Shown here one piece after another: positions 13,744-36,916 of a stretch of DNA of 64,000 nt. Under the pieces are notes generated by a model. That model ran no database searches, had not been told where the DNA came from, and was given only the letters and a program-made list of their open reading frames with translations. Positions within the stretch are counted from its first letter, which is position 1. Each line of letters begins with the position of its first letter. The stretch comes from an uncultured Nesterenkonia sp. (lineage in GTDB: Bacteria; Actinomycetota; Actinomycetes; Actinomycetales; Micrococcaceae): positions 372,001 through 436,000 of the forward strand of contig CANLUC010000003.1 in assembly GCA_947494195.1 (NCBI GenBank). Direction: 5' to 3'. Made by a program: the position numbers and the translations under genes.

Positions 13744-15822
13744 CTAGCTGGCTCCAGCATCTGGGGCAGCACCGGGAAGGGCCTCTCGGGTGAAGCAGGC
13801 CCTCAGGCCGGAGCTCGAGACGACCAGCAGCTCCTGGTGCAGCCGTGTCCTTGAGGTGGAGATCTTCCCGCTGAAACTGCCTGGTGCTGTCGCGTCTGGT
13901 GACAGCAGATGTCCGTCCGCCCACACGCTGAGCGTGGGTCCGGCTCCCTGTACCCGGACGCTCACGTGGAAGAAGCGGCCCGACCGCTCGATCGTCACGC
14001 TGTGGCGGATCTCGGCGCTTTCTGCCTCGCCAGGGACGCCGGCTGAGACATCGCCTCCGCCTGACAGCTCGTCCCGTGGCTGCCCGCCACCCCCTCCGGG
14101 CACCGGGATCTGCCCGCTGGGCAGCGGCGGGGTGAGAAACGCTCGCTGCCGGTTCCGCGTGGCCTGCTCGTAGGCCCAGGCGTGGCTGAGCAGCGTGTCG
14201 TCACTGTAGGCGGGGCCCGCGAAGGTCAGTCCCACGGGCATCTGGATATCGGACATGAAGCCCATGGGCACCGTCACGGTGGGGATGCCCAGATGGCGGA
14301 TCACCCGGTTGCCGTTGGAGTAGGCGACACCGTTGCGCGAGGCGTGCTCCAGGCTCTCCGGCCGGGTGAAGAGGTCATCACGTCCGACGTCGCCGGCCGC
14401 CGGGAAGACGATCCCGTCCAGGCCCTCCCGCTGCATCCATTCCTCGAAGTCCTGGCTGCGAGCGGCCTCGAGTCCGCGCAGCAGCTGCGCGGCGCCCTCG
14501 ACCTCGTCGTAGGAGTCGGGCAGGCCGGCCTTGACCAGTTCGGCCAGCCGCTGCCAGTCGAATCCGCCGCGCGCACGAGTGATCCAGACGTGAACCGGCG
14601 CGTCCTCGGTGGGAAAGACCGTGTCGCCGTCCACCTCGGCCCAGGTCGCGGGCGCGGCGTCTCCGCCCGGCTCGGCTGACCCGCCGTCGGGAGCGCCCGA
14701 GCTGTTCTCGCGCAGGAACTGGTCCAGCGCCATCGCGGTGATGACTCCCCCCTCGAGGTCCCGCCAGTTCGTCGGGACCAGCCCACGAGCGGCGAGTCCC
14801 TCGGAGTCGGGATGGGACTCCTCATAGTTGGTCACGGCCGGGAGGTCCACCTCCACGACCTCGGCGCCGAGGCTGCGCAGCTCCTGCGCGGCCTTGTCCC
14901 AGAGCGCCTTCACGGTCGGACGGATCAGCGGCGGGTCCAGCAGCAGCTCGTCCTCGCCGATGTACATCTTGGGCACGCCGAGACGCACCCCGTCGAGACG
15001 CTCGCTGCGCGCCCGGGCGATCTTCTCCGGGAAGACTTCCGCCGGGGCGGGCAGCTCCACGGCGCTCTGCTGGCGCCAGAAGTCGCCGGTGGTCTCGGGG
15101 TCCTCGGTGACGAGCGCCTCCAGCAGGCGCAGCATGTCGTCCATGGTGCGGGTATGTGGAGCGACGACGTCGCAGGTCGGGCGCAGCGGCCAGTTCCCGC
15201 GGATGGAGAGCACCCCGCGCGAGGGGGTGTAGGTCACCAGTGCGTTGTTCGAGGCTGGGGAGCGGCCCGAGGAGACGGTCTCCTCCGCCATGCCGAAGGC
15301 CGCGAAGCTCGCCGCCGTGGAGGTGGCCGACCCATTGGAGGAGCCTGAGCCGTAGGCGGCGGTGAGGTACTGCGGGTTGTATGGGCTGCGCGCGTAGCCA
15401 TAGACACCGGGCTGAATCCCGCCCGCCGCCATGGGCGGCATGTTCGTCTTGCCCAGCAGCACTGCCCCGGCGGCACGCAGCTGTTCCACGGTGGCGGCAT
15501 CACGGGTGGCGATGAGGTCTTTCAGCGCGGGGCTCCCCGAGGCCACGGTCAGCCCCTTGACCATATAACTGTCCTTGACGGTGAAGGGCACCCCCTCCAG
15601 CCGGCCTGCCTCGCCGCGGCGGCGACGCTCGTCCGAGGCGGCTGCCTCCTGCAGCGCGTCGGGGTTCAGCACCGGCACGGCGTTGAGGCACAGCCCCGTG
15701 CGGTCGTAGTAGGCGATGCGATTGAGATAGGCGCATGTCAGCTGCACGCTGGTGAACCGCCCGGCGTCGAGCGCCGCACACATCTCGGAGATGCTCATCT
15801 CCACCACATCGTCGTACCGCAC
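13744..15822 (-). CDS. Amidase-signature hydrolase with C-terminal extension
   Basis: A 692-residue protein. Residues 1-~560 form an amidase-signature domain: VPFTVKDSYMVKG contains the catalytic Lys, AAYGSGSSNGSATSTAA the cis-Ser, and GMAEETVSSGRSPASNN the nucleophilic Ser region. A Gly/Pro linker leads to an extra domain of about 110 residues that looks beta-rich (SVTIERSGRFFHVSVRVQG) and is not part of the usual enzyme. It is the last gene of the leftward pyrimidine operon, 42 bp after the binding-protein gene. It may release ammonia from an amide or ureide substrate (biuret-, malonamide- or allophanate-like); the substrate is inferred from context only. Start is GTG with SD GAGAGGAG. Confidence 0.85.
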   Translation of the reverse strand: MRYDDVVEMSISEMCAALDAGRFTSVQLTCAYLNRIAYYDRTGLCLNAVPVLNPDALQEAAASDERRRRGEAGRLEGVPFTVKDSYMVKGLTVASGSPALKDLIATRDAATVEQLRAAGAVLLGKTNMPPMAAGGIQPGVYGYARSPYNPQYLTAAYGSGSSNGSATSTAASFAAFGMAEETVSSGRSPASNNALVTYTPSRGVLSIRGNWPLRPTCDVVAPHTRTMDDMLRLLEALVTEDPETTGDFWRQQSAVELPAPAEVFPEKIARARSERLDGVRLGVPKMYIGEDELLLDPPLIRPTVKALWDKAAQELRSLGAEVVEVDLPAVTNYEESHPDSEGLAARGLVPTNWRDLEGGVITAMALDQFLRENSSGAPDGGSAEPGGDAAPATWAEVDGDTVFPTEDAPVHVWITRARGGFDWQRLAELVKAGLPDSYDEVEGAAQLLRGLEAARSQDFEEWMQREGLDGIVFPAAGDVGRDDLFTRPESLEHASRNGVAYSNGNRVIRHLGIPTVTVPMGFMSDIQMPVGLTFAGPAYSDDTLLSHAWAYEQATRNRQRAFLTPPLPSGQIPVPGGGGGQPRDELSGGGDVSAGVPGEAESAEIRHSVTIERSGRFFHVSVRVQGAGPTLSVWADGHLLSPDATAPGSFSGKISTSRTRLHQELLVVSSSGLRACFTREALPGAAPDAGAS

Positions 15823-15864
15823 GGGGCTGCTCCTCTCTCGGGGTGCTGTGGATCCTGGCTCTGG

Positions 15865-17025: not shown

Positions 17026-17119
17026 GGTGATTCCTTCTTCGTGTCGGTGCGAGTGGACGGTGGAACGTGTGGGATGAAACGTGTGCGGCGCAGCCGGGGC
17101 TGACGCCGGCGGGCTGAGC

Positions 17120-17899
17120 TCAGCCCGCGGCCGCGGCGCGGGAGCGGTTGGCCAGCCGCTCCAGCGCGAGGGTGGTGAGGTAGAACAGCAGACCCAGCAC
17201 GATCGAAGCCAGCACATAGGCCCAGGCTCGCGGGTACTGGCTGGAGGCCGCAGCCGTGGAGATGATGCCGCCGAGCCCCCCGCGCGGGCCGCCGAAGTAC
17301 TCGGCGACCAGGGCTGAGATCACGGCCAGCGACGAGGCGATCCGCACGCCGGTGAAGACGTAGGGCACAGCAGTGGGCAGCGTGATGGTCCGGAAGACCT
17401 GCACACCCGAAGCCGCGTAGGAGCGCATCAGGTCCCGGTGCTCCGGGTTGGTCTGCCGCAGCCCGCGCAGCGTGGAGACGAAGACCGGCACGAAGGAGGC
17501 CAGCCCGGCGATGGCCTGGCGCGGGAACTCGGTGGTGCCGAACATGGTGTTCAGGATGGGCGCCAGTGCCACGATCGGGATCACCGCGAGCGCCGCCACG
17601 AAGGGGTTGACCATGTCATGCACCGGCTTCAGCGAAGCGGCCAGCGCGGCGAACACCACGCCCAGCAGGCTGCCGGCCACCAGTCCCACCAGGGAGTTCC
17701 ATCCGGTGATCAGCCCTGCCTCCACGATGGAGTCGGAGAACTGCTGCGCCTCGGAGAAGATCGCCATCGGGGTCGGCAGCAGGTACCCGCTGACGCCGAC
17801 CACTCCCACCAGGATCTGCCAGACGGCCAGCCCGAGCAGCCCCAGGGCTATAGGAGCCAGGATCCTTCCGGCCGTCGTCGTCGTCGTTGTTGTCTCCAT
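17120..17899 (-). CDS. ABC transporter permease (pyrimidine-type importer)
   Basis: A 259-residue inner-membrane protein with about six helices and the EAA-type loop (MRSYAASGVQVFRTITLPTAVPYVFTGVRIASS) of the SsuC/TauC/ThiX-like permease family. VVGVSGYLLPTPMAIFSEAQ follows the first helix as is typical. Its start overlaps the ATPase stop (TGATG), showing translational coupling. It pairs with the second permease at 18842-19762 to form a heterodimeric channel. A 94-bp gap separates it from the binding-protein gene downstream. Confidence 0.9.
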   Translation of the reverse strand: METTTTTTTAGRILAPIALGLLGLAVWQILVGVVGVSGYLLPTPMAIFSEAQQFSDSIVEAGLITGWNSLVGLVAGSLLGVVFAALAASLKPVHDMVNPFVAALAVIPIVALAPILNTMFGTTEFPRQAIAGLASFVPVFVSTLRGLRQTNPEHRDLMRSYAASGVQVFRTITLPTAVPYVFTGVRIASSLAVISALVAEYFGGPRGGLGGIISTAAASSQYPRAWAYVLASIVLGLLFYLTTLALERLANRSRAAAAG

Positions 17900-18756
17900 C
17901 AGCGCGTCTCCACGCCGCGCCCGCTGGGGGCTCCCCCGTGCAGGGCTTCCCGCACCGCGGTGATCATGCGGAAGTACGAGGCGTCTTCGCGCAGGTCGTC
18001 CCCGCGGGCGGCCGGGTCCTCGAGCTCCATGTCCACCACCTCAGAGATCCGTCCTGGCCGGGGCGACATCACCACCACGCGGTCGGAGAGGTAGACGGCC
18101 TCCGGGATGGAGTGGGTCACGAACACCACGGATGCTCCGGTCTCGGTGCAGATGCGCAGCAGCTCGGTCTGCATGCGCTCGCGGGTCATCTCATCCAGCG
18201 CGCCGAAAGGCTCGTCCATCAGCAGCAGCCGGGGCTTCTCGGCCAGCGAGCGTGCGATGGCCACGCGCTGCTGCATGCCGCCGGAGAGCTGGTCGGGATG
18301 ATGATCGCCGAAGTCCTCCAGCGAGACCATCTCCAGCAGCCCCTGCACGCGCGCCTTGCGCTGCGCGGAGCTGACTCCGTGCAGCTGCAGCGGCAGACCG
18401 ATGTTGTCGCTCACCGTGCGCCACGGCAGCAGTCCCGCCTTCTGGAAGGCAATGCCGTAGTCCTGGTCCCTGCGCGCCTGTCGGGCATCCTTGCCGAAGA
18501 CCTGCAGCTCACCGCTGCTCGGCTGGTCCAGGTCAGCGATCAGCCGCATGAGCGTGGACTTTCCACAGCCGGAGGGCCCGATCAGCGAGACGAACTCCCC
18601 AGGTCGCACGCTGAGGCTGATGTCGGAGAGCGCATGGACCTCACCGCCGGAGGTGGGAAAGATCTTCTCGATGTGCGCGGCCGCAACGGCGGGGGCGGAG
18701 TCACCGGCGGGCGGCGACTGCTCCCGGGCGGGGCTCGTGGTGTGAGGTGTGCTCAT
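17899..18756 (-). CDS. ABC transporter ATP-binding protein
   Basis: A 285-residue ATPase of the SsuB/TauB/ThiY-partner family. It has Walker A IGPSGCGKSTLMR, signature LSGGMQQRVAIARSL, Walker B LLLMDEPFGALD, and the VVFVTHSIPEAVYLSDRVVVM switch region. About 25 disordered residues precede the core. It energises the importer formed with the flanking permeases and the NMT1/THI5 lipoprotein. Confidence 0.92.
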   Translation of the reverse strand: MSTPHTTSPAREQSPPAGDSAPAVAAAHIEKIFPTSGGEVHALSDISLSVRPGEFVSLIGPSGCGKSTLMRLIADLDQPSSGELQVFGKDARQARRDQDYGIAFQKAGLLPWRTVSDNIGLPLQLHGVSSAQRKARVQGLLEMVSLEDFGDHHPDQLSGGMQQRVAIARSLAEKPRLLLMDEPFGALDEMTRERMQTELLRICTETGASVVFVTHSIPEAVYLSDRVVVMSPRPGRISEVVDMELEDPAARGDDLREDASYFRMITAVREALHGGAPSGRGVETR

Positions 18757-18841: not shown

Positions 18842-19762
18842 TCATTTCTCTTCCGTTCGCCGGTACTTGCTCAGGATCACGCCCAGCATCGCCACCGATC
18901 CGGCGGCGACCAGGCCCAGGGCCACGGCGCCGAAGATCGGGCCCCAGGCCTTGGCGGGATCGCTGCTGGCCTGGCCGGCGAACTGGATCAGGAGCCGGCC
19001 GATGCCTCCGCGCTGACCCGTGGAGATCTCCGCGACGACGGCGCCGATCACCGCGTTCGCCGCCCCGAGTCGCAGCGCCGCGAGCAGGTACGGCACGGCC
19101 GCGGGCAGCCGGAGACGCAGCAGCGTGGTCCACCATCCGACGGAGTAGGTGTGCATGAGCTCCACATGCGCGGTCTCCGGGGACTGCAGGCCCTTGAGTG
19201 CCCCGACGGCGATCGGGAAGAAGGCCAGCCAGGAGGCGATCAGCGCCACCGACATCCAGCCCTCCCACTGGATCGGGCCGAGCTCCAGCTGCGCTCCCCA
19301 GGACCGGACCACCGGAGCGAACGCGATGATCGGCACGGTCTGGGAGAGCACGATCCAAGGCAGCAGCGCCCATTCTGCGATCTTCCAGCGCAGCATCACC
19401 AGGGCCAGCCCCACCCCGACGACGACGCCGGCCAGCCAGCCCGCCGCCGCGATGCCCAGCGTGAACGCCGAGGCCGAGACCACGGTCACCCACAGCGGCG
19501 AGGCGTTGCGCGCCTGGGTCTCGCCTTCGAAGAGGCGCGTCACCATGTCCCAGGTGTGCGGCATGGCGAGGTCCGAGGTGCGCGGCAGCAGCCGGGTGTC
19601 CCCGAGCACCACCCCTGCCTCGGGTCCGATCGCCTTGTATCCCTCCCAGAGCAGCAGCAACAGCAGGATCCCGATCACGCCCCAGAGCCAGGTCGCCCGG
19701 GAACCGGGTGGACCGGTGCGGGAGAACAATCCGGTGTTCGGCGTGCTCGGCGCTGCCGTCAT
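18842..19762 (-). CDS. ABC transporter permease, second subunit
   Basis: A 306-residue membrane protein with about six helices. The EAA loop reads [47 protein letters not shown], and a periplasmic insertion of about 50 residues follows the first helix ([19 protein letters not shown]). It is more divergent than the other permease, as expected for a heterodimer. Its ATG overlaps the fgd stop codon (ATGA), linking uptake and F420 reduction in one operon. Confidence 0.87.
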
Positions 19763-20847
19763 GCTCTGGACTCCGTAGGCGCCGGTCCCGTGGGGGCCAC
19801 GGGAAGCGGAGCCGGCACGAGTGCGCGGATGCCCTCGGCGAGGTCGCGTTCGAAGACCTCGAGGAAACGCCGCTGGTCGTGGCCCGGGCCGTGGAAGATC
19901 AGGTGGTTGAAGCCGGCGTCGGTGTACTGCTTCACGGCGGCCACGATCTCCTCTGGGTCTGATCCGACGATCCAGCGCTTGGCGACCTGGTCCAGGGGCA
20001 GCGCGTCGGCTGCCTGCTCCATCTCCACGGGATCATCGATCGAGTGCTTCTGCTCTGCACTCAGGGACAGCGGCGCCCAGAAGCGCGTGTTCTCCAGCGC
20101 CGCCTGCGGATCCGGATCGTAGGAGAGCTTGATCTCGATCATCCGGTCGATCCGCTGCGGATCACGCTCATTGACCTCCGCCCCCGCCACCACAGCAGGC
20201 AGCAGCTTCTCCGTGTAGAGCTCCATGCCCTTGCCCGAGGTGCAGATGAACCCGTCTCCGGCTCGACCGGCGTACTTCGCCACGGTGGGGCCGCCGGCCG
20301 CGATGTAGATGGGGACCTCCTGCTCCGGCTTGTCGTAGATCGAGGCGTCCTGGGTGGTGTAGTACTCGCCATCGAAGCTGACGCGCTCCTCGCGCCACAG
20401 TGCGCGGATCAGCCGGACCGACTCGCGCAGCCGGGCGAAGCGCTCCTTGAACGCCGGCCACTCCTGGTCCTCGCTCTTGCCACGAGCTCCGTTCCACCCG
20501 GTGGCGATCTCGTTGAGCGCCTCGCCGGATCCGACACCGAGCATGATTCGGCCCGGATACAACGACCCGAGAGTCCCGAAGGCCTGCGCGATCACTGCTG
20601 GGTTGTAGCGGTAGTGCGGGGTCATCACCGAGGTGCCCAGCATGATGCGTTCGGTGCGCTCTCCCGCCGCCGCCATCCAGGCGATGGAGAACGGCGCGTG
20701 TCCCCCGGTGTGGCGCCAGGGCTGAAAATGGTCCGAGACGACGGCGGAGTCGAACTGGTGCTTCTCCGCCAGGACGGCGTATTCGACCAGCTCGCGGGCG
20801 CCGAACTGCTCCGCCGAGGCCTTATAGCCGATTCTGAGTTCTGTCAT
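19759..20847 (-). CDS. fgd: F420-dependent glucose-6-phosphate dehydrogenase
   Basis: A 362-residue luciferase-like barrel that reads almost residue for residue like mycobacterial FGD1: [97 protein letters not shown]. The FGD1 substrate and catalytic residues are all present: Asp39, His40, Trp44, Glu109, and after an 8-residue insertion Lys206, Lys267 and Arg291 bind phosphate. It oxidises glucose 6-phosphate and reduces F420 to F420H2. Its position between the oxidoreductase gene and the transporter points to a supply role for the catabolic pathway. The C-terminal Pro/Ala tail is extra. Confidence 0.95.
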
Positions 20848-20867: not shown

Positions 20868-21896
20868 TCAGGACTTCGCCTGGATCTGCTCGGCGAAGGC
20901 CGGGATGACCGTCTCGCCGTAGACCCGCAGGGTCTCTTCCTTGTTGTCATGGGCGAGGTACCCGGCGAACTGCGTCATGCCGATCGCCTGGAGGCGGCGC
21001 AGCTTCTCCTCGTGTTCGGCGGCGGTGCCGATCATGCAGAAGCGTTCGACGATCTCGTCCGGGACGAAGTCCACATGGGAGTTCCCGGCCCGTCCGTGCT
21101 CGTTGTAGTCATAGCCTTCACGGCCCGCGATGTAATCGGTCAGCGCTTTCGGCACTGCGGAGTCGGTGCCGTAGCGGGTGACGATGTCGGCGACGTGATT
21201 GCCCACCATCCCGCCGAACCAGCGGCACTGCTCGATGGCATGGCGGCGGTGCTCCTCGCTGCCGTCGGTGATGTAGAACGGCGCCGCGACACAGAAGGCG
21301 ATGTCATCCGGGTTGCGCCCGACGTTCGCCGCCGCCTCACGGACCGTGGTGATCATCCATTCCGCGATCTCCACGTCCCCGCACTGCAGGATGAATCCGT
21401 CCCCGGTCTCCCCGGCGATGGTCAGCGCGCGGGGCCCGTAGGCGGCCACCCAGACGTCGAGCTGGGAGCCGGTGGACCACGGGAAGCGGATCGTGGCCTC
21501 GTTGATCTCCGCAGACCTTGAGTTGGCAAGCTCTTTGATGACCTCGATGGCGCGACGGAAGTCCTTGAGCGTGACCGGTTTGCCGTTCATCACCCGCACG
21601 GCGGAGTCGCCGCGGCCGATCCCACAGATCGTCCGGTTTCCGAAGTGGTGGTTGAGCGTGGCGTAGGTGGAGGCGGTCACGGTCCAGTCCCGGGTCGCCG
21701 GGTTGGTGACCATGGGGCCGACCTTGATCCTGGTGGTCTGGTCCAGGATCAGGGAGTAGAGCACATACGGCTCCTGCCACAGGATGTGGGAGTCGTAGGT
21801 CCAGAAGTAGTCGAAATTGTGCTCCTCGGCGCGCCGGGCGAGGGCGAGCGTGCGGGCGGCCGGGGGGTTCGTCTGGGTGACGACGCCGAATTCCAT
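20868..21896 (-). CDS. Luciferase-like F420-dependent oxidoreductase (CPS_4043 type), candidate pyrimidine reductase
   Basis: A 342-residue LLM-superfamily barrel: [44 protein letters not shown] at the N-terminus (shown in pieces: [20 protein letters not shown]), [34 protein letters not shown] and [20 protein letters not shown]. This pattern matches the CPS_4043 family of predicted F420-dependent oxidoreductases. It lies between dihydropyrimidinase and fgd, exactly where dihydropyrimidine dehydrogenase would be expected; no iron-sulfur DPD is encoded here. I infer reduction of uracil/thymine to the 5,6-dihydro base with F420H2. The alternative is a RutA-like monooxygenase or another ring substrate. 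Family call firm, reaction inferred. Confidence 0.85.
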
Positions 21897-23444: not shown

Positions 23445-24293
23445 TCACGGGGCGGTGAGAGCACCATAGGCATCCGGGCGACGGTCGCGATAGAACTGCC
23501 ACTCGTTGCGCACCTCGCGGACCAGGTCCAGGTCCAGGTCGCGGATCAGCAGCTCCTCGGCGGAGGACGAGCCGCGCTCCCCCACGTAGTTCCCGCGCGG
23601 ATCCGCCACATACGAGGTGCCGTAGAAGTCCACGGCCAGCTCCCCGTACTCGTTGTCCTCGCGACCCACCCGGTTGGGCACCACGACGAAATACCCGTTG
23701 GCGGCGGCGGCTGTCGGCTGCTCCAGGTCCCAGAGCCGGTTGGACAGGCCGGGTTTGGAGGCGTTGGGGTTGAACACGATCTCCGCGCCACCCAGACCCA
23801 GCATCCTCCACCCCTCGGGGAAGTGGCGGTCGTAGCAGATGGTGACCCCGATCTTGCCGATGGCGGTGTCGAAGACGGGCCAGCCCAGGTTGCCGGGACG
23901 GAAGTAGAACTTCTCGTAGAAGTTGTCGACATGGGGGATGTGGTTCTTGCGGTACTTGCCAGCGATCGACCCGTCCGCGTCCACGACGACGGCGGTGTTG
24001 TAGTAGACCCCCGGCATGTCTTCCTCGTAGATCGGCAGGATCATGACCAGCTGCAGCTCACGGGCCAGGGCGGCGAACCGGGTGACCACGGGCCCATCGG
24101 CGGGCTCCGCGAAGGAGTAGTACTTCCGTTCCTCGGTGATGCCGAAGTAGGGACCGTAGAACAGTTCCTGGAAGCAGATGGCTTGGGCTCCCTCGGCGGC
24201 GGCGCTGCGCGCGAACTCCTCGTGCTTGAGCACCATCGACTCTTGGTCTCCGGTCCAGGTCGTCTGGCTCAACGCCACGCGAACTGTGGTCAT
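23445..24293 (-). CDS. Nitrilase-superfamily N-carbamoyl-beta-alanine amidohydrolase (beta-ureidopropionase)
   Basis: A 282-residue C-N hydrolase with the Glu-Lys-Cys triad: Glu43 in CFQELF, Lys116 in YRKNHIP and Cys153 in ICYDRHFPEG. The loop NHIPHVDNFYEKFYFRPGN and NRVGRE match beta-ureidopropionase and N-carbamoylputrescine amidase; the dihydropyrimidinase beside it favours ureidopropionase. It would cleave N-carbamoyl-beta-alanine or N-carbamoyl-beta-aminoisobutyrate to the beta-amino acid, CO2 and ammonia. It is the first gene of the leftward operon; its ATG faces a 344-bp divergent control region. Confidence 0.9.
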   Translation of the reverse strand: MTTVRVALSQTTWTGDQESMVLKHEEFARSAAAEGAQAICFQELFYGPYFGITEERKYYSFAEPADGPVVTRFAALARELQLVMILPIYEEDMPGVYYNTAVVVDADGSIAGKYRKNHIPHVDNFYEKFYFRPGNLGWPVFDTAIGKIGVTICYDRHFPEGWRMLGLGGAEIVFNPNASKPGLSNRLWDLEQPTAAAANGYFVVVPNRVGREDNEYGELAVDFYGTSYVADPRGNYVGERGSSSAEELLIRDLDLDLVREVRNEWQFYRDRRPDAYGALTAP

Positions 24294-29321: not shown

Positions 29322-30343
29322 AGATCACGATGTTGGCCGGCGGTGTCGGCGGAGCCAAGTTCGCGCTCGGGCTGCGCGCCCTGCTCCAGGCCCGACACCC
29401 GGATCATGAGCTGCGCATCATCGCCAATGTCGGCGACGACATGTGGCTGACCGGCCTGAAGGTCTGCCCGGATCTGGATTCACTGATGTACGCGCTGGCC
29501 GGGGTCAACGATGCCCAGCGCGGCTGGGGTCGCGAGGACGAGAGCACCCGGGTCAGCGCTGAGCTCTCCGAGTTCGGGGTGGGCTGGCCCTGGTTCACGC
29601 TCGGAGATCTCGATCTCGGCACGCACATCGCCCGGTCGGCGCTGCTGCGGGAGGGGCTGCCGCTCTCGGATGTCACCCGCAGGCTCAGCGCCCGCTGGGA
29701 CCTGGGGGCACGGCTGCTGCCGGCGGCCGAGACCGATCTCGAGACCTGGGTGGAGCTCGAGGCGGGCTGCGCGGAGACCGGGACGGTCCACTTCGAGGAA
29801 TGGTGGGTCCGTCTGCGAGCCGGGATCCCGGCACACCGGTTCCACCAGCGCGGGACGCAGCCGGTGCAGCCTGGCGCGGGTGTGCTCGAGGCCATCGCCG
29901 ATGCTGATGCGGTGCTGTTCGCGCCCTCGAACCCGGTGGTCTCCATCGGCACCATCTGCGGCTTCCCCGCCGCCGACGGGCCCGGGATCGCGGGCATCCC
30001 TGAGATCGCCGATGCTTTGCGCTCCACGCGGGCTCCGGTGGTCGGGGTCTCCCCCATCATCGATTCCGCTCCGCTGCGCGGCATGGCACGGCAATGTCTT
30101 CAGAGCCTCGGCTGGGAGTGTTCGGCCCGCGCGGTGGGGCTCGCGTACGGGGCGCGCAGCGCCGGGGGGCTTCTGGACGGGTGGCTGGTCGATGAGGCCG
30201 ACGCGTCCGCGGTGCCCGAGCTGCGCAGCGCCGGGCTTCATGCGCAGGCCGCTCCGCTGTGGATGACCGACGCCGCGACGTCGCAGGACCTCGCCGCGGC
30301 GGCCCTGCAGCTGGCCGACCTGGTCTCCTCATCACCTCGTTGA
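29318..30343 (+). CDS. cofD: 2-phospho-L-lactate transferase (FbiA)
   Basis: A 341-residue CofD-family protein starting ITMLAGGVGGAKFALGLRALL, followed by IIANVGDDMWLTGLKVCPDLDSLMY, TWFTLGDLD-type segment (WFTLGDLDLGTHIARS), FAPSNPVVSIGTI and APVVGVSPIIDSAPLRGMA. It joins Fo to the GTP-activated phosphoacid to form F420-0 or dehydro-F420-0. It is the last gene of the rightward operon and its ATG overlaps the monooxygenase stop. It ends 1 bp from the convergent cofE stop. Confidence 0.93.
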   Translation: MKITMLAGGVGGAKFALGLRALLQARHPDHELRIIANVGDDMWLTGLKVCPDLDSLMYALAGVNDAQRGWGREDESTRVSAELSEFGVGWPWFTLGDLDLGTHIARSALLREGLPLSDVTRRLSARWDLGARLLPAAETDLETWVELEAGCAETGTVHFEEWWVRLRAGIPAHRFHQRGTQPVQPGAGVLEAIADADAVLFAPSNPVVSIGTICGFPAADGPGIAGIPEIADALRSTRAPVVGVSPIIDSAPLRGMARQCLQSLGWECSARAVGLAYGARSAGGLLDGWLVDEADASAVPELRSAGLHAQAAPLWMTDAATSQDLAAAALQLADLVSSSPR

Positions 30344-31214: not shown

Positions 31215-32606
31215 TCAGGCGTCGCGGATGAACTCGTCGGCGAGGTCAAGCACTTCGTCGAGCACGCCGATCCCGAAGCTCAGCTCCTCTGCCGTGGTGT
31301 TCAGCGGCGGGCAGATGTGCAGCCGGGTCATGTTCATGAAGGGAAGCACTCCCCGGGCTTTGCACGCCGCGACGAGTTCACCCATCAGCGCCGGGGTCTG
31401 CCCATAGGGGGCCAGCGGTTCCCTGGTGGTCTTGTCCTTGACCAGCTCGATGGCCCAGAACATGCCGACGCCGCGCACATCCCCGACGCTGGGGTGGCGT
31501 TCCTTGAGCTGCTGCAGCCGCGGCGCGATCACCTCTTTCCCGAGGTGCAGTGCGTTCTCCACCATGCCCTCGTCCCGCATGGCATTGATCGCGGCCACTG
31601 CGGCGGCCGCGGCGAGGGGGTGACCCGAGTAGGTCAGGCCCCCCGGGTAGAGGCGCTGGGCGAAGGTGGCGTAGATCGCGTCGTCCATGGCCACGCCGCC
31701 CATCGGCACGTAGCCGGAGTTCACGCCCTTCGCGAAGGTGACGATGTCCGGCTCGATCCCGAAGTGCTCATGGGCGAACCACTTGCCGGACCGTCCGAAG
31801 CCTGCCATCACCTCATCGATGATCAGCACCAGCCCGAACTCGTCGCAGAGCGCACGCACGCCCTGCATATATCCCTCGGGCGGCAGATAGATCCCGGCGG
31901 TTCCCGGGATCGCCTCCAGGATGATCGCCGCGACCTGCGCGGGGCCCTCGAGGGTCAGCGTGTCGCGCAGATGCGCCAGCGCCCGCTCGGTCTCCCGCTG
32001 CTCGCTCCACCGGTCCGCCTCCGCCGGACGGAAATGCGAGCGGTAGGTGTAGGCCGGGAGGAAATGGACCACCCCGGCGTCGTCGTCGTTGGCTATCCGA
32101 CGGGGGTCTCCGGTGAGATTCACCGCCAGGTGTGATCCGCCGTGGTAGGAGCGGTAGGCGGAGAGGATCTTGCGCCGACCGGTGTGCAGCCGCGCCATGC
32201 GGACCGCGTGCTCATTGGCGTCGGCGCCTCCTGCGGTGAAGAAGACGTGGTTGATGTCCTCGGGCAGCAGCTCGGTGATCAGCCGAGCGGCTTCGGACCG
32301 GGCGTCATTGGCGTGCTGCGGCGCGACGGTGCAGAGCTTCTCCGCCTGGTCCTTGATCGCCGCGATGATCTTGGGGTGCTTGTGTCCCGCGTTGGTGAAG
32401 ATCAGCTGGGAGGTCAGGTCGAGGAGCTTGTTGCCCTCCCCGTCCCAGATCCAGGAGCCTTCCGCATCCAGCACGGTCATCGGGGTCAGCGACTCCTGGG
32501 CGCTCCAGGAGTGGAACACGTGCTGGCGGTCTAGGTCATAGCCGGTCCGCCCGGCCTCGATCGTCTCGGGGCTGATTCGGGTGCTCGCGCTGGTCTCGGT
32601 GGTCAT
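31215..32606 (-). CDS. Class III (omega) aminotransferase, likely beta-alanine/beta-aminoisobutyrate transaminase
   Basis: A 463-residue fold-type I PLP enzyme. It has LLDLTSQLIFTNAGHKHPKI, FFTAGGADANEHAVRMAR, YRSYHGGSHLA, IIDEVMAGFGRSGKWFA with the PLP-nitrogen aspartate (Asp264), and the Schiff-base lysine Lys293 in TFAKGVNSGYVPMG. In context it would move the amino group of beta-alanine or beta-aminoisobutyrate to pyruvate or 2-oxoglutarate, making (methyl)malonate semialdehyde for the adjacent dehydrogenase. The ATG at 32606 has a good family N-terminus; the upstream extension is spurious. The beta-amino-acid substrate is inferred from neighbours. Confidence 0.88.
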   Translation of the reverse strand: MTTETSASTRISPETIEAGRTGYDLDRQHVFHSWSAQESLTPMTVLDAEGSWIWDGEGNKLLDLTSQLIFTNAGHKHPKIIAAIKDQAEKLCTVAPQHANDARSEAARLITELLPEDINHVFFTAGGADANEHAVRMARLHTGRRKILSAYRSYHGGSHLAVNLTGDPRRIANDDDAGVVHFLPAYTYRSHFRPAEADRWSEQRETERALAHLRDTLTLEGPAQVAAIILEAIPGTAGIYLPPEGYMQGVRALCDEFGLVLIIDEVMAGFGRSGKWFAHEHFGIEPDIVTFAKGVNSGYVPMGGVAMDDAIYATFAQRLYPGGLTYSGHPLAAAAAVAAINAMRDEGMVENALHLGKEVIAPRLQQLKERHPSVGDVRGVGMFWAIELVKDKTTREPLAPYGQTPALMGELVAACKARGVLPFMNMTRLHICPPLNTTAEELSFGIGVLDEVLDLADEFIRDA

Positions 32607-32661
32607 GGATCTCTCCTGGTCGTCTCGTGCTGGTCGATCTGCGCCGGTCAGTCCTGCCTGG

Positions 32662-34182
32662 TCAGTCGTTCTGTGGGAAGCCCAGCTGCAGGCCGCTCTC
32701 GGCGGGATCGCCCCAGCGGGTGGTGACGACCTTGCCGCGGGTGTAGAAGTGCACGCCCTCGGCGCCATGGGCGTGGCTGTCGCCAAAGAGGGAGTTCTTC
32801 CACCCGCCGAAGGAGTAGTACGCCATCGGCACCGGAATCGGAACGTTGACCCCCACCATGCCCACCGAGACCTCCATCTCGAAGCGACGTGCGGCGGCCC
32901 CGTCCCGGGTGAAGATCGCGGTGCCGTTGCCGTAGGGGTTGGTGTTGATCAGCTCCAGCGCCTGCTCATAGGTCTCGGCACGCACCACGGAGAGCACGGG
33001 CCCGAAGATCTCATCCTGGTAAGCCTTCATCGCCGGGGTGACGTGGTCCAGCAGGGTCGGACCGAGGAACGCAGCTTCGCTGACATCGGCCTCGGCCCAG
33101 CTGCGACCATCGACGACGATGCTCGCGCCCTCGGCCTCGGCACCGTCCACATAGCTGCGCACCTTGTCCCGATGACCGCGGTTGATGAGCGGCCCCAGAT
33201 CAGGGTTCTCGCCCCCGAGGGAGAGTCCGCGGGTGCGCTCGGCGATCTTCTCGACCAGCTGATCGGCGATGTCCCCGACGGCGACCACCACGGAGATCGC
33301 CATGCAGCGCTCACCCGCGGAGCCGTAGCCGGCCGAGACCGCGCTGTCTGCGGCGCGCTCGAGATCAGCATCGGGCAGGACCATCATGTGGTTCTTCGCC
33401 CCGCCGAGGGCCTGGACTCGCTTGCCGGCCTTCGTCCCGGTCTCGTACACGTATTTGGCCACCGGCGTGGAGCCGACGAAGGAGACCGCCTGGATGTCCG
33501 GGTGGTTCAGCAGACCGTCGACGGCGACCTTGTCCCCGTGCAGGACGTTGACCACGCCGTCGGGCAGCCCCGCCTCCTGCCAGAGCTCGGCCTGCCAGTT
33601 CACCGCGCTGGGATCCTTCTCACTGGGTTTGATCACGACCGTGTTGCCCGAGGCCACCGCGATGGGGGTGAACCACATGGGCACCATCGCCGGGAAGTTG
33701 AACGGGGTGATGATCGCGACCGGGCCGAGCGGGTGCCGGGCCGAGTGCACGTCGACATCCGTGGAGGCGTTGATGGTCAGCGAACCCTTGAGCTGATGCG
33801 GAATGCCGCAGGCAAACTCCACGACCTCGAGTCCGCGCTGGACCTCGCCGAGCGCGTCGGAGAACACCTTGCCGTGCTCCCGGGAGATGATCTGCGCCAG
33901 CTCCTTCTTCCGAGCGTTCAGCAGCTCGCGGTAGCGGAAGAGTATCTGTGTGCGCTTCGACAGCGACGCCGTCTTCCACGTGGAGAAGGCCTCCTTCGCC
34001 GTGTCCACCACGTGATCCACGTCGGCCTGGGCCGCCAGCGGAATCTCGGTGACGACCTCACCGGTGGCGGGGTTCTCCACGGGGATCCGTGAGGCGGACT
34101 CCGAGGCGACGGTCCTGCCTCCGATCCAGTGGCCGGTGGCGGCGGTGGTCAGGGTCTGCGGAGCTGAGGAGATCTCGGTCAT
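32662..34182 (-). CDS. mmsA: CoA-acylating (methyl)malonate-semialdehyde dehydrogenase
   Basis: A 506-residue aldehyde dehydrogenase of the MMSDH subfamily. ITPFNFPAMVPMWFTPIA is the NAD-binding stretch, VQALGGAKNHMMVLPDAD shows Asn where ordinary ALDHs have the general-base Glu, and GYGSAGERCMAIS holds the nucleophile Cys293. FTRDGAAARRFEMEVSVGMVGVNVPIPVP is subfamily-typical. It converts methylmalonate or malonate semialdehyde with CoA and NAD to propionyl- or acetyl-CoA plus CO2, the last step of thymine/uracil breakdown. It is the first gene of the mmsA-aminotransferase-cofE unit and divergent from pucR. Confidence 0.94.
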   Translation of the reverse strand: MTEISSAPQTLTTAATGHWIGGRTVASESASRIPVENPATGEVVTEIPLAAQADVDHVVDTAKEAFSTWKTASLSKRTQILFRYRELLNARKKELAQIISREHGKVFSDALGEVQRGLEVVEFACGIPHQLKGSLTINASTDVDVHSARHPLGPVAIITPFNFPAMVPMWFTPIAVASGNTVVIKPSEKDPSAVNWQAELWQEAGLPDGVVNVLHGDKVAVDGLLNHPDIQAVSFVGSTPVAKYVYETGTKAGKRVQALGGAKNHMMVLPDADLERAADSAVSAGYGSAGERCMAISVVVAVGDIADQLVEKIAERTRGLSLGGENPDLGPLINRGHRDKVRSYVDGAEAEGASIVVDGRSWAEADVSEAAFLGPTLLDHVTPAMKAYQDEIFGPVLSVVRAETYEQALELINTNPYGNGTAIFTRDGAAARRFEMEVSVGMVGVNVPIPVPMAYYSFGGWKNSLFGDSHAHGAEGVHFYTRGKVVTTRWGDPAESGLQLGFPQND

Positions 34183-34248
34183 GCGGCAATTCTGATCCAG
34201 CGACGCTCCGGCGGCCAGGTACAGATTGTCAGGTCCCCGGCCCTGATT

Positions 34249-34285
34249 CTGACACTGTGTAAAGACGACCGGTAGGCTGGGTCCG
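34249..34285 (+). promoter_or_regulatory. pucR promoter with overlapping operator
   Basis: CTGACA (34249-34254), an 18-bp spacer and TAGGCT (34273-34278) place transcription start at the GTG 34285, so the transcript would be leaderless. TGACAC-T-GTGTAA (34250-34262) is the same 6-1-6 palindrome found upstream of cofC and covers the -35 box, which suggests repression of pucR and possibly control of the divergent mmsA. Confidence 0.6.
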
Positions 34286-35637
34286 TGACTGACTCCCCCG
34301 CTGATTCCAGGTTCACGGTGCAGGACGCGCTGGAGCTCTTCGCGCTGGCCGCTGGCCGTCCGCGCCTGCTCAATGCCTCTGCCTCGCTGGATCGCACCGT
34401 CCGGTGGAGCCACATCATCGGTCAGGACCATCCGGGCAGCATGCTGCGCGGCGGGGAGCTGGTGCTCTCCACGCTCCCCCGGCTCGACGAGGGCCGCGAG
34501 AATCTCGAAGAGGTCCTCCGGGTCTATCTGCGGGACCTCGACGCCGTGGACGCGGCCGCGCTCGCCGTCGAGGTGCTCCCGGACCGGCCTCGTCTGCTCT
34601 CCGCCCTCCATGCGGTGGTCCAGGAGCGGGAGACCGCGGAGGGCGTGGCTCGGGCAATGCCGGTGCTGCTCTTCGAACGCGTGGTCCGGTTCGTGGAGAT
34701 CACCGAGGCGGTGCACCGCCAGCTGGTCTCACGCCAGATGGGGATCCGGCAGACTGACGCCCTGGAACGGGATCCGCTGCTCAGCGCCACCACCAACCTG
34801 TTCGATGATCTCGCCGCTCCCGGCGGCCTGCCGGAGACCGAGGTCTCGGCGCGCGCCTTGGCGCTGGGCATGCCGGCGGAGAGCCTCACCGGCCGTGGGA
34901 ATGCTCCGTCGGTCGCTCCGGCTGCCTTCACCGCGCTGGTCTTTCACGTGGAGGAAAGCCCCGGAGCTGACACCGGTGCGCGACCTCCGATGGCCCTGGC
35001 CGCACTCATCCGGGAGACGGCAGCGCGGATGCACGCCCCCACCCTGGTGGGTTCCCGCGCCGGGGACAGGCTCTCGGTCTTGGTGGCACAGGCGGACCCG
35101 GCCCGGCTGTGCCTCGCGGTCCGTGAGGAGGCCGCACGGCGGCGCAGCCGCGAGCTCGTCCCGCGCTATCTCGTCGCGGCGGGCCAGCTCGCCGGACGAG
35201 ACCAGGTCACCCTGCAGGAGTCCCCGGTGGCACTGGCGCACGCAGCCGAGGTCGCCGCCACGGCGTCGATGGTCATGGAGCGCTCGACGACGGGCGGCAG
35301 CGGCCAGCGGGGGTACTGGCGGGCAGACGATCTGGGACTGAAGGGGCTTCTGGTCCACCTGGCGTCCCATCAGCAGAGCCGGAGCTCCGTGGAGTGGTTC
35401 CTCGATCACCACCTGGCGCCGCTGCGTGGACGAGATCGCGAGGAGATGCGCGCCCTGGTCCGGGCCATGTCGCGCACCGGCGGAAACAAAGCCGGCCTCG
35501 CCCGAGAGCTGGGCATCAGCCGCCCGACCCTCTACGCGCGCATCGAGCGCCTAGAGCGGTCGGTGGGTCGGCCTCTCGAGGGTGAGACTCTGACTCTGCT
35601 GCAGACGGCCTTACTGCTCGAGGAGCTCCAGGGCTGA
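34285..35637 (+). CDS. PucR-family transcriptional regulator
   Basis: A 450-residue PucR-type protein: N-terminal PucR ligand domain (VQDALELFALAAGRPRLLNA, then RTVRWSHIIGQDHPGSMLRGGELVLST), a middle GGDEF-like CdaR region, and a C-terminal helix-turn-helix with GGNKAGLARELGISRPTLYARIERLE. Family members respond to purine, allantoin or other nitrogen-ring metabolites. It lies between mmsA and the alcohol dehydrogenase, and its promoter carries the palindrome shared with the cofC region. It is the natural candidate regulator for the pyrimidine/F420 genes. The GTG start is supported by the promoter position. Confidence 0.88.
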   Translation: MTDSPADSRFTVQDALELFALAAGRPRLLNASASLDRTVRWSHIIGQDHPGSMLRGGELVLSTLPRLDEGRENLEEVLRVYLRDLDAVDAAALAVEVLPDRPRLLSALHAVVQERETAEGVARAMPVLLFERVVRFVEITEAVHRQLVSRQMGIRQTDALERDPLLSATTNLFDDLAAPGGLPETEVSARALALGMPAESLTGRGNAPSVAPAAFTALVFHVEESPGADTGARPPMALAALIRETAARMHAPTLVGSRAGDRLSVLVAQADPARLCLAVREEAARRRSRELVPRYLVAAGQLAGRDQVTLQESPVALAHAAEVAATASMVMERSTTGGSGQRGYWRADDLGLKGLLVHLASHQQSRSSVEWFLDHHLAPLRGRDREEMRALVRAMSRTGGNKAGLARELGISRPTLYARIERLERSVGRPLEGETLTLLQTALLLEELQG

Positions 35638-35815
35638 TCCGATCACTGCGCAGGGCCTGGCAGTTCCCCAGGCGACACGTCCAGCAGAGGTGGAAGACAT
35701 GGGCGTAACGTGGCAAGTGGAACACACCCCTGTCGCCTCGAGTCGCCTCAGGGGGCCATGACCCAGAACTTTTCGAGCACGAGTCACCGTTCTGACACCC
35801 TTCGAAAGGAACAAC

Positions 35816-36916
35816 ATGAAGACGAGAGCAGCAGTCGCCGTCGCCCCGGAGACGGATCTGGAGATCCGCGAACTGAACCTTGACGAACCCCGCCCAGACG
35901 AGCTGCAGGTGAAGATGATCGCCTCGGGCGTGTGCCATACCGACGCGATCGTCCGAGACCAGTGGTACCCCGTGCCGCAGCCCGTGGTCCTCGGCCACGA
36001 GGGCGCGGGTATCGTGGAACAGGTCGGGTCCGCCGTCGTCGGCTTCGAGGTCGGCGACAAGGTCGTCGTCGGACCCTCCTTCTGCGGCCAGTGCGAGCAG
36101 TGCCTCTCGGGGCACCCGATGTACTGCGTCGACTTCTATGACCGCAACTTCGGCGGGAAGCGCGGGGATGACTCCACCGCGTTCAGCACCGACGACGGCG
36201 AGGCGGTCGGCTCCCACTTCTTCGGCCAGTCCTCCTTCGCCGAGTACACCAATCTGCCGGCCCACGGTGCCGTGAAGGTCCCGGAGGATGCCCCGCTGGA
36301 GCTGCTCGGCCCGCTGGGCTGCGGCATCATGACCGGCGCGGGCGCCGTGCTGAACGTCCTGCGCCCGAAGGCCGGCTCCTCCGTCGTCATCTTCGGCACC
36401 GGCGCAGTGGGCATGGCCGGCATGCTCGCGGCCAAGGCCGCCGGCGCGACGACGATCATCATGGTCGACATCGTGCCCGAGCGCCTCGAGTTCGCCAAGG
36501 AGCTCGGCGCCACCCACACGGTGAACTCCAAGGAGACCGACCCGGTGGAGGCCGTGAAGGAGATCACCGGCGGCGGCGCGCAGTTCGCGCTGGACACCAC
36601 GGGCATACCCGCGGTCTTCTCGCAGATGACCAAGTCACTCGCGGTACAGGGCCACGGAGCCCTGGTCGGCGCGGCGAAGCTCGGCACCGAGGCGCCCTTC
36701 GACATCGGCACGCTGCTGGTCTCCGGCATCACCGTGAGCATGGTCGTCGAGGGCGACGCAGTGCCCAAGGAGTTCATCCCGCGCATGATCGCGCTCTACC
36801 AGGAGGGCAAGTTCCCCTTCGACAAGCTCACCAAGACCTACCCGTTCGATGAGATCAACACTGCCTTCGCGGATTCCGCCGCAGGCACCACCCTGAAGCC
36901 CATCATCACCTTCTGA
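35816..36916 (+). CDS. Zinc-dependent NAD(P) alcohol dehydrogenase (aryl-alcohol type)
   Basis: A 366-residue medium-chain dehydrogenase. The catalytic zinc site is built from SGVCHTD and GHEGAG, the structural zinc site from CGQCEQCLSGHPMYC, and the cofactor motif GTGAVGMAG is followed by VDIVPERLEFAKELGA, indicating NAD preference by the acidic residue. It resembles benzyl/aryl-alcohol dehydrogenases. SD AAAGGA lies 7 nt before the ATG. It may interconvert semialdehydes with 3-hydroxy acids in the pathway, but no direct link is shown; a strong terminator isolates it from the iron operon. Confidence 0.88.
   Translation: MKTRAAVAVAPETDLEIRELNLDEPRPDELQVKMIASGVCHTDAIVRDQWYPVPQPVVLGHEGAGIVEQVGSAVVGFEVGDKVVVGPSFCGQCEQCLSGHPMYCVDFYDRNFGGKRGDDSTAFSTDDGEAVGSHFFGQSSFAEYTNLPAHGAVKVPEDAPLELLGPLGCGIMTGAGAVLNVLRPKAGSSVVIFGTGAVGMAGMLAAKAAGATTIIMVDIVPERLEFAKELGATHTVNSKETDPVEAVKEITGGGAQFALDTTGIPAVFSQMTKSLAVQGHGALVGAAKLGTEAPFDIGTLLVSGITVSMVVEGDAVPKEFIPRMIALYQEGKFPFDKLTKTYPFDEINTAFADSAAGTTLKPIITF

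What the first reader, a model, noticed from the sequence alone, without database searches (positions are those of the whole stretch)
13744..36916. Self-contained F420-linked reductive pyrimidine catabolism island
One block carries an importer of the pyrimidine-binding NMT1/THI5 class, dihydropyrimidinase, beta-ureidopropionase, a beta-amino-acid-type aminotransferase, a (methyl)malonate-semialdehyde dehydrogenase and a PucR regulator, interleaved with fgd, cofC, fbiC, cofD and cofE. The only missing classical step is the iron-sulfur/flavin dihydropyrimidine dehydrogenase. An LLM-family F420 oxidoreductase occupies that place. Seen: gene order, overlaps and motifs. Known: reductive pyrimidine pathway and F420 families. 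Inferred: F420H2 is the ring reductant and cofactor synthesis travels with the pathway.
Basis: partly seen in the sequence, partly recalled or inferred. Interest (0 to 1): 0.92.

Follow-up and report, generated by a model that had tools for sequence, protein, structure and literature searches.

The report
F420-dependent pyrimidine-degrading gene island
This actinobacterium carries a gene set for breaking down uracil and thymine in which the usual iron-sulfur enzyme for the first step appears to be replaced by an unrelated enzyme that uses the rare cofactor F420, made and recharged by genes sitting beside it.

Summary
Window 13744-36916 carries a CN-hydrolase (predicted beta-ureidopropionase), dihydropyrimidinase, a TIGR03842 luciferase-like (LLM) oxidoreductase, Fgd, an NMT1-type ABC importer, cofC-fbiC-(FMO-like)-cofD, cofE, an aminotransferase, methylmalonate-semialdehyde dehydrogenase and PucR. 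No PreA was found in the genome (99.91% complete); its one DHO_dh protein is PyrD.

Comparison supports TIGR03842 being an F420H2-dependent uracil/thymine reductase. In 75 of 80 named actinobacterial loci it lies directly downstream of dihydropyrimidinase. Of 296 actinobacterial genomes 62 have it; 59 of those have dihydropyrimidinase, none a detected PreA or RutA. In Leisingera plasmids cofGHDCE-npdG-TIGR03842 accompanies NCS1, HydA, HyuC, aminotransferase and a RutR-like regulator; HydA is 74% identical to one from a PreA cluster of the same order, and the HydA tree forces at least two changes of partner. Brevibacterium loci pair the LLM with a RutG-like permease and NpdG.

Five genomes with TIGR03842 keep cofD but show no FO synthase, suggesting FO salvage.

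No assay exists; substrate and cofactor are inferred. Eight of 26 LLM genomes checked hold further, unclassified DHO_dh-like proteins. New variant of a known kind: an unrelated enzyme for a known step.

The parts
23445..24293 (-). Carbon-nitrogen hydrolase, predicted beta-ureidopropionase (PydC role)
   Evidence: PF00795 219 bits; PDB relatives include beta-ureidopropionases 8pt4 and 6ftq but also N-carbamoylputrescine amidohydrolase 5h8i; motif stretches with Glu43, Lys116, Cys153 located (their catalytic roles recalled)
21943..23400 (-). Dihydropyrimidinase (PydB role)
   Evidence: TIGR02033 532.6 bits over cut-off; start placed; motif stretches with His65/His67, Lys156, His189, His245, Asp329 (numbered from this start; one search shows them one higher) located, ligand roles recalled
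20868..21896 (-). TIGR03842 LLM oxidoreductase, predicted F420H2-dependent uracil/thymine reductase
   Evidence: TIGR03842 551.8 bits; AlphaFold model mean pLDDT 82.6, best PDB matches F420-dependent Mer
19759..20847 (-). [quoted passage not shown]
   Evidence: TIGR03554 610.1 bits
18842..19762 (-). ABC importer permease
   Evidence: PF00528; 4-base overlap with fgd
17899..18756 (-). ABC importer ATPase
   Evidence: PF00005; 56% identical to the ATPase of the PreA-type cluster of Deinococcus aquaticus
17120..17899 (-). ABC importer permease
   Evidence: PF00528
15865..17025 (-). NMT1/THI5-type solute-binding protein, predicted nucleobase binding
   Evidence: PF09084 128.3 bits; 32% identical to the binding protein of the PreA cluster of Qingshengfaniella
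13744..15822 (-). Amidase, last gene of the operon; probably not core
   Evidence: NF005127 658.2 bits; found in 1 of 80 related loci
24638..25357 (+). CofC/FbiD-type guanylyltransferase
   Evidence: TIGR03552 95.9 bits, just below cut-off 105
25354..27816 (+). FbiC (CofGH), FO synthase
   Evidence: TIGR03550 465.6 over cut-off, TIGR03551 329.9 below cut-off; start; 4-base overlap with cofC
27813..29321 (+). FMO-like flavoprotein of unknown role, overlapping fbiC and cofD by four bases each
   Evidence: PF13738/PF00743; homologues in 3 of the 4 related loci that hold fbiC
29318..30343 (+). CofD
   Evidence: TIGR01819 295.2 bits
30345..31172 (-). CofE, single-domain
   Evidence: TIGR01916 222.7 bits; model PRK13294 (NF009810) matched only over 4-258 of 449
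31215..32606 (-). Class III aminotransferase, predicted beta-alanine/beta-aminoisobutyrate:2-oxoglutarate (PydD role)
   Evidence: NF004718 706.4 bits; best PDB match taurine:2-oxoglutarate aminotransferase 6jix
32662..34182 (-). CoA-acylating (methyl)malonate-semialdehyde dehydrogenase
   Evidence: TIGR01722 698.4 bits; 58% identical to the one in the PreA cluster of Thalassospira
34285..35637 (+). PucR-family regulator
   Evidence: PF07905 60.9 bits, PF13556

Best explanation
The island is a reductive pyrimidine catabolic (Pyd) cluster whose first enzyme has been replaced by a non-homologous one. The ABC importer brings in uracil/thymine (inferred). Fgd reduces F420 with glucose 6-phosphate. 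The TIGR03842 enzyme, a Mer-like LLM hydride transferase, passes the hydride from F420H2 to C6 of the ring to give dihydrouracil/dihydrothymine (inferred). Dihydropyrimidinase opens the ring. The CN-hydrolase cleaves the N-carbamoyl beta-amino acid. The aminotransferase and the CoA-acylating semialdehyde dehydrogenase turn beta-alanine or beta-aminoisobutyrate into acetyl- or propionyl-CoA. CofC/FbiC/CofD/CofE make the cofactor. PucR regulates. Shown by sequence: families, gene order, no PreA or RutA detected, LLM and PreA alternating in related clusters. Inferred: substrate, direction and cofactor of the LLM, and the direction of the exchange.
For: (1) No competing first enzyme here: one DHO_dh in the genome, PyrD. 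PreA at E<=1e-60 in 2 of 296 actinobacterial genomes and 0 of the 62 with TIGR03842 over cut-off. RutA over cut-off in 0 of 296; the one hit at E<=1e-100 is in G247, not among the 62. (2) 59 of the 62 have dihydropyrimidinase against 28 of 234 without the LLM (Fisher p 1.4e-36; within 15 kb in 48 of 62). (3) In 75 of 80 named loci dihydropyrimidinase lies 7-153 bases upstream of the LLM. (4) Leisingera plasmids: NCS1-HydA-HyuC-AT-pntBA and cofGHDCE-npdG-LLM, then a RutR-like regulator. HydA and HyuC of L. caerulea are 74% identical to those of the PreA cluster of Qingshengfaniella, same order; its AT is 70% identical to that of the Thalassospira PreA cluster. HydA tree: the two Leisingera rows group with the PreA-linked Qingshengfaniella row at 100/96, at least 2 label changes forced. 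(5) The PreA cluster of Deinococcus aquaticus has HydA, an ABC importer, HyuC, a PucR-annotated regulator, AT and semialdehyde dehydrogenase, the window's contents with PreA and its partner for the LLM and HyuC for the CN-hydrolase. (6) In Ca. Nesterenkonia stercoripullorum and Brevibacterium (L034-L038) RutG-like permease and npdG genes lie beside the LLM. (7) cofG in 52 of 62 LLM genomes against 96 of 234 others (p 1.4e-9). (8) The other eight LLM-superfamily proteins of this genome: seven are over cut-off for monooxygenase or MsnO8 subfamilies, one unassigned. (9) Foldseek ranks 1-27 are F420-dependent Mer, Fgd, Fgd2 or Adf.
Against: No assay, no ligand, no expression data. 27 of 87 dihydropyrimidinase genomes have neither LLM nor PreA, so a missing PreA alone does not prove replacement. 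PreA is so rare in this phylum that its absence from 62 genomes is not telling by itself, and the PreA and RutA searches scored only the best five or six candidates per genome. In 26 LLM genomes searched for DHO_dh with all candidates scored, 8 have a further hit over the Pfam cut-off besides the strong PyrD-like one; these are 21-29% identical to PreA over most of their length where aligned, reach only to about residue 340 of PreA, and the three compared with the PDB match class 1 dihydroorotate dehydrogenases best, two of them dihydropyrimidine dehydrogenase more weakly; their function is unassigned. Ten of the 62 LLM genomes show no cofG, and three of these (G119, G259, G160; 96, 90 and 81% complete) also no cofD. 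Five of 80 named loci show no dihydropyrimidinase; two of these have full 10 kb flanks. In G225 and G237 the LLM gene is split between two frames. The CN-hydrolase is as close to N-carbamoylputrescine amidases as to beta-ureidopropionases. The 80 loci are the best of 550 confirmed and so are biased to close relatives.
Confidence: 0.85

Rival explanations
1. The LLM is F420-dependent but acts on another step, for example reducing malonate semialdehyde to 3-hydroxypropionate (an Adf-like carbonyl reduction), with pyrimidines entering as dihydropyrimidines or through an unknown reductase.
For: LLM enzymes such as Adf (1rhc) handle carbonyls; PydE-type semialdehyde reductases exist in Pyd clusters (legend passage of PMC7332683); 55 of 80 loci show no semialdehyde dehydrogenase in the DNA held; unassigned DHO_dh-like proteins occur in 8 of 26 LLM genomes.
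Against: A CoA-acylating semialdehyde dehydrogenase is present in this window and in 25 of 80 loci, where no reductase is needed; the LLM with its cofactor genes appears in clusters that keep the other steps but lack PreA; the closest characterised relatives are Mer, not Adf.
Confidence: 0.05
2. The LLM reduces a different cyclic ureide or N-heterocycle (hydantoin-, imidazolone- or purine-derived), as proposed for a Chloroflexota F420 enzyme acting on 'yanthine'.
For: The dihydropyrimidinase family also opens hydantoins (names); PMC12507026 (passages seen) proposes an F420-dependent LLM in uric acid degradation; NCS1 proteins score with allantoin permease models below cut-off; the regulator belongs to PucR, a family named for purine catabolism.
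Against: Aminotransferase plus (methyl)malonate-semialdehyde dehydrogenase fit beta-amino acids from six-membered dihydropyrimidines; a RutR-like regulator and a RutG-like permease accompany the LLM elsewhere, both below their equivalog cut-offs; apart from PucR no purine-specific gene was recognised among the proteins of the island that were scanned.
Confidence: 0.07
3. The LLM uses FMN, not F420, and its closeness to F420 genes is incidental.
For: Ten of 62 genomes with TIGR03842 lack a cofG hit.
Against: Seven of those ten keep cofD; five of the seven show neither cofG nor cofH, as if FO is taken up. In Leisingera and Paracoccus cofG to npdG overlap by a few bases and the LLM follows within about 30 bases on the same strand. 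Fold and profile neighbours are F420 enzymes.
Confidence: 0.03

Closest known systems
PreT-PreA / PydA dihydropyrimidine dehydrogenase (NAD(P)H- or ferredoxin-dependent)
   Same: Predicted reaction; HydA, HyuC or CN-hydrolase, aminotransferase, semialdehyde dehydrogenase and ABC or NCS1 importers are partners of both
   Different: Fold, cofactor and electron source: PydA works with FMN, FAD and ferredoxin domains (abstract of PMC7332683); the LLM is a 342-residue Mer-like barrel, predicted to use F420
Mer, F420-dependent methylene-tetrahydromethanopterin reductase
   Same: LLM fold, closest in profile (115.7 bits with TIGR03555) and structure (8qpl, TM 0.75)
   Different: About 26% identity; the block W226-F227...N233-H234...Y262-D263-Y264-H267 invariant in 13 TIGR03842 proteins aligns poorly with Mer
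TIGR03842 (F420_CPS_4043), NCBIfam hypothetical equivalog
   Same: Member over cut-off
   Different: The family name gives no reaction; this work proposes one
Proposed F420-dependent yanthine reductase of Chloroflexota (PMC12507026, passages seen)
   Same: Idea of an LLM/F420 ring reductase in a cluster with the dihydropyrimidinase-like HyuA
   Different: Purine-derived substrate, another phylum; called putative there
RutA pyrimidine monooxygenase
   Same: LLM superfamily and pyrimidine substrate (recalled)
   Different: Oxidative, FMN-dependent (recalled); the LLM does not match TIGR03612 at E<=0.001 and no RutA was found in the genome

Membership tests
TIGR03842 (F420_CPS_4043) | Score over curated cut-off 295.45 bits across the whole model | tested here: met
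   551.8 bits, positions 1-329 of 329
F420-dependent LLM hydride transferase | LLM barrel closest to F420-binding members | tested here: met
   Foldseek ranks 1-27 are all Mer, Fgd, Fgd2 or Adf; model mean pLDDT 82.6, with segments 38-40, 97-103 and 268-270 under 50
F420-dependent LLM hydride transferase | Binds and oxidises F420H2 | not testable with these tools
   needs protein
F420-dependent LLM hydride transferase | Host has genes to make F420 | tested here: met
   cofC, fbiC, cofD, cofE, fgd in the window; CofC and the CofH half are below their cut-offs
Dihydropyrimidine dehydrogenase PreA/PydA | DHO_dh barrel of the PreA type (NF006183) | tested here: not met
   LLM is PF00296; no NF006183 match in the genome at E<=1e-60
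Reductive pyrimidine (Pyd) pathway | Dihydropyrimidinase | tested here: met
   TIGR02033 532.6 bits
Reductive pyrimidine (Pyd) pathway | Beta-ureidopropionase | tested here: inconclusive
   CN-hydrolase; relatives include both beta-ureidopropionase and N-carbamoylputrescine amidase
Reductive pyrimidine (Pyd) pathway | Aminotransferase and (methyl)malonate-semialdehyde dehydrogenase of the families used downstream | tested here: met
   NF004718 and TIGR01722 over cut-off; substrate of the aminotransferase untested
Reductive pyrimidine (Pyd) pathway | Enzyme that reduces uracil/thymine | not testable with these tools
   LLM inferred from context only
RutA | TIGR03612 over cut-off 498.3 | tested here: not met
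   no match at E<=0.001 for the LLM; none in G000 at 1e-100

The most novel reading that the evidence does not exclude
TIGR03842 is a second, unrelated dihydropyrimidine dehydrogenase, free of iron-sulfur clusters and driven by F420H2, that has exchanged places with PreT-PreA at least twice (Actinomycetota, Rhodobacterales). Pyrimidine catabolism is then a main reason why some Alphaproteobacteria carry F420 genes at all, and some actinobacteria that lack FO synthase but keep CofD depend on FO from neighbours, as on a vitamin, to degrade pyrimidines.
Probability: 0.45. Interest if true: 0.92.

Novelty: new variant of a known kind. Interest (0 to 1): 0.82.

Why it matters
It would give a function to a widespread NCBIfam family (over cut-off in 62 of 296 actinobacterial genomes) whose name gives none, add a non-homologous enzyme for the first step of a textbook pathway, and help answer why Proteobacteria make F420, which the 2021 F420 review lists among its unanswered questions (PMC8498797: passages, section 23). 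The word uracil does not occur in the main text of that review. Ten paper searches ran. Those that join F420 with dihydropyrimidinase, hydantoinase, dihydropyrimidine dehydrogenase, uracil or pyrimidine-catabolism terms listed no title or start of abstract that proposes F420-dependent pyrimidine reduction; two searches listed only 15 of 156 and 15 of 26 papers, and most subscription journals are not held. The test is simple and decisive.

Tried and rejected
Rejected: that the canonical dehydrogenase sits elsewhere in this genome; that RutA serves; that the amidase and the alcohol dehydrogenase at the edges are core. Led nowhere or of limited use: PF04075 (F420H2-dependent quinone reductases) gave no hit in the genome, but no control genome rang either, so F420 users of other superfamilies are not excluded. 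The predicted structure gave fold neighbours only, no coordinates for a pocket analysis. The ORF picker put some starts too far upstream; five were reset. The three genes between cofD and the pyrimidine operon in G268 gave no evident FO transporter: an Ig-domain, an MprF-like and a MocR-like protein. In the one passage seen of PMC10143877, F420 and uracil are not connected. PMC6279831: searches of its main text for pyrimidine, hydantoin, CPS and proteobacteria gave nothing. Left unresolved: the further DHO_dh-like proteins in 8 of 26 LLM genomes.


Full report
What is there. The stretch holds a reverse-strand run with gaps of at most 94 bases or short overlaps: CN-hydrolase (23445-24293), dihydropyrimidinase (21943-23400), TIGR03842 LLM enzyme (20868-21896), fgd (19759-20847), ABC permease, ATPase, permease, NMT1-type binding protein (15865-17025) and an amidase (13744-15822). 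Divergent to it runs cofC-fbiC-FMO-like-cofD (24638-30343), each start overlapping the previous stop by four bases. cofE, a class III aminotransferase and a CoA-acylating (methyl)malonate-semialdehyde dehydrogenase follow on the reverse strand, and a PucR gene at 34285-35637. Scores against curated cut-offs are in the observation check; CofC, the CofH half of FbiC and the CN-hydrolase do not reach one. The nearest named relatives are Nesterenkonia and Brevibacterium (LLM 84% in L034, 76% in L039, 78-80% in L035-L038), so the host is probably a member of the Micrococcales near Nesterenkonia (inference).

No conventional first enzyme. The genome (99.91% complete, 27 contigs) has a single DHO_dh match, all nine candidates scored, a quinone-dependent dihydroorotate dehydrogenase; no PreA at E<=1e-60 and no RutA at E<=1e-100. 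Of its ten LLM-superfamily proteins two are Fgd and TIGR03842. The other eight were classified: seven are over cut-off for monooxygenase subfamilies or MsnO8, one is unassigned. So, within the LLM superfamily, TIGR03842 is the only recognised user of the F420 that Fgd would reduce; F420 users of other superfamilies were not excluded.

Distribution among 296 actinobacterial genomes. TIGR03842 over cut-off: 62. Dihydropyrimidinase at E<=1e-100: 87; both: 59; three LLM genomes lack it (G149, G216, G234). On coordinates, dihydropyrimidinase lies within 15 kb of the LLM in 48 of 62 genomes; two more have both farther apart on one contig and nine have them on different contigs. Fisher p for co-occurrence is 1.4e-36; genomes are related, so this is not a count of independent events. 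cofG: 52 of 62 against 96 of 234 without the LLM, p 1.4e-9. PreA: 2 of 296, none in the 62. RutA: one hit at E<=1e-100, none over cut-off, none in the 62. The PreA and RutA searches scored at most five and six candidates per genome. Against the reading: 27 of the 87 dihydropyrimidinase genomes have neither the LLM nor PreA. And of 26 LLM genomes searched for DHO_dh with all candidates scored, 18 have one hit over the Pfam cut-off and 8 (G031, G042, G053, G091, G177, G188, G237, G246) have a further one. Seven of these eight align with PreA or PyrD at low identity, G053 with neither, and none aligns beyond about residue 340 of PreA. Three (G246, G031, G188) were compared with the PDB: all match class 1 dihydroorotate dehydrogenases best, and G246 and G031 also dihydropyrimidine dehydrogenase more weakly. 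What they do is not known.

Neighbourhoods. Of these 80, 75 have the CN-hydrolase, 75 dihydropyrimidinase, 53 the aminotransferase, 54 the binding protein, 25 the semialdehyde dehydrogenase, 34 cofD, 4 fbiC; many loci are cut by contig ends. All 75 dihydropyrimidinase genes lie directly upstream of the LLM, 7-153 bases away by alignment ends. Of the 57 loci with full 10 kb flanks, 32 hold at least one F420 synthesis or reduction gene, counting cofC, cofD, fbiC or npdG at any identity, cofE at 45% or more and fgd at 50% or more. Outside this clade order and partners change while the LLM stays: G188, G177, G042, G111, G023 and G237 show different gene orders, and G023 and G237 an NCS1 symporter beside it; in G237 and G225 the LLM gene is split between two frames. 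In Brevibacterium L036 the LLM is followed by a gene scoring 340.9 bits with RutG (cut-off 758.65) and 237.3 with uracil permease (cut-off 477), and by npdG over cut-off; homologues of the pair follow the LLM in L034 (permease at 39% identity), L035, L037 and L038. None of L034-L038 shows dihydropyrimidinase in the DNA held.

A second phylum. Plasmids hold TIGR03842-like proteins in Alphaproteobacteria: ten Leisingera and one Paracoccus record at about 44% identity; three were read. Leisingera caerulea and L. aquaemixtae: NCS1, HydA, HyuC, aminotransferase and transhydrogenase on one strand, cofG-cofH-cofD-cofC-cofE-npdG-TIGR03842 on the other, then a regulator that scores with RutR below cut-off (194.1 of 368 in L. 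caerulea). Paracoccus alcaliphilus: cofGHDCE-npdG-TIGR03842 followed by an ABC importer with an NMT1-type binding protein, without HydA in the 41 kb read.

The swap. PreA-bearing plasmid clusters were read in Qingshengfaniella, Burkholderia, Thalassospira, two Azospirillum, Klebsiella, Deinococcus and Mycetohabitans (eight of 61 records found). In all eight PreA follows an 'NAD(P)-dependent oxidoreductase', presumably PreT (name recalled). HydA is in seven of the eight stretches, a HyuC-type 'Zn-dependent hydrolase' in all eight, an ABC importer or NCS1 in five, and aminotransferase plus semialdehyde dehydrogenase in two. Deinococcus aquaticus reads PreT-PreA-HydA-ABC importer-HyuC-PucR-aminotransferase-semialdehyde dehydrogenase; its importer, HydA, aminotransferase and dehydrogenase are 31-56% identical to the window's, its PucR-annotated protein gave no match to the window's PucR. 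HydA and HyuC of Leisingera caerulea are 74% identical to those of Qingshengfaniella, a PreA cluster of the same order; its aminotransferase is 70% identical to that of the Thalassospira PreA cluster. A tree of 35 dihydropyrimidinases (27 LLM-linked, 8 PreA-linked; L036 had none to include) places the two Leisingera rows with Qingshengfaniella (100/96); the label needs 3 changes and starred branches force at least 2; which partner came first is not shown, and long branches (L144, L126, L121, L127) make the deep part unsure.

Mechanism. The model of the LLM (mean pLDDT 82.6, 19 sequences) matches Mer best, then Fgd and Adf, before luciferases and FMN monooxygenases. Across 13 members of both phyla 66 columns are invariant, among them W226-F227, V231, N233-H234-V235, D237, Y262-D263-Y264 and H267, a region that aligns poorly with Mer; it is a candidate for the substrate site, but blocks of this region have mean pLDDT of 55-76. 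Hydride transfer from F420H2 to C6 with protonation at C5 is the expected chemistry by analogy with PydA (recalled).

Loss of FO synthesis. Ten of the 62 LLM genomes have no cofG at E<=1e-40. Seven of these ten have cofD over cut-off; three (G119, G259, G160) have none. cofH is over cut-off in G280, below it in G290, a short piece in G119, a trace in G259, and without any match in G268, G225, G188, G177, G227 and G160. So five genomes (G268, G225, G188, G177, G227) hold cofD but no detected FO synthase; G225 is one contig and G268 four, both listed as 100% complete. The simplest reading is uptake of FO; no transporter was identified, and the LLM of G225 itself is split.

Verdict. Observation confirmed; interpretation supported by context in two phyla, by the absence of a detected alternative in this genome and by an apparent exchange with PreT-PreA. 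Function, substrate and cofactor remain unshown. PMC12507026 proposes a similar F420 role for a purine-derived ring in Chloroflexota (passages), so the idea of an F420 ring reductase is in print, for another substrate.

Noticed in passing
window 27813-29321: An FMO/Baeyer-Villiger-like flavoprotein overlaps fbiC and cofD by four bases each; homologues occur in three of the four related loci that hold fbiC (L040, L070, L084, not L046). CofE here lacks the second domain of the FbiB-length model, so this protein may substitute in a late F420 step (a guess); the genome has one nitroreductase-family hit elsewhere.
   Followed up: partly
G268, G225, G188, G177, G227 (loci L119, L120, L123, L124 for four of them): Genomes with TIGR03842 and cofD but no cofG or cofH match: apparent FO auxotrophs.
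   Followed up: partly
L120:13488-14500 and L125:9367-10373: In G225 and G237 the LLM gene is split between two reading frames; pseudogene or sequence error, not resolved.
   Followed up: no
L034-L038: LLM loci of Ca. Nesterenkonia stercoripullorum and Brevibacterium carry a RutG-like NCS2 permease and npdG; no dihydropyrimidinase within the DNA held, although L036 and L038 have full flanks.
   Followed up: partly
L147-L154: Further DHO_dh-like proteins in eight of 26 LLM genomes, without the C-terminal part of PreA in the alignments; function unassigned.
   Followed up: partly
L146 (Mycetohabitans rhizoxinica megaplasmid): A strain of the species known as a 3PG-F420 producer (named so in section 23 of PMC8498797 under its older name) carries a conventional PreA-HydA-HyuC cluster.
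   Followed up: no
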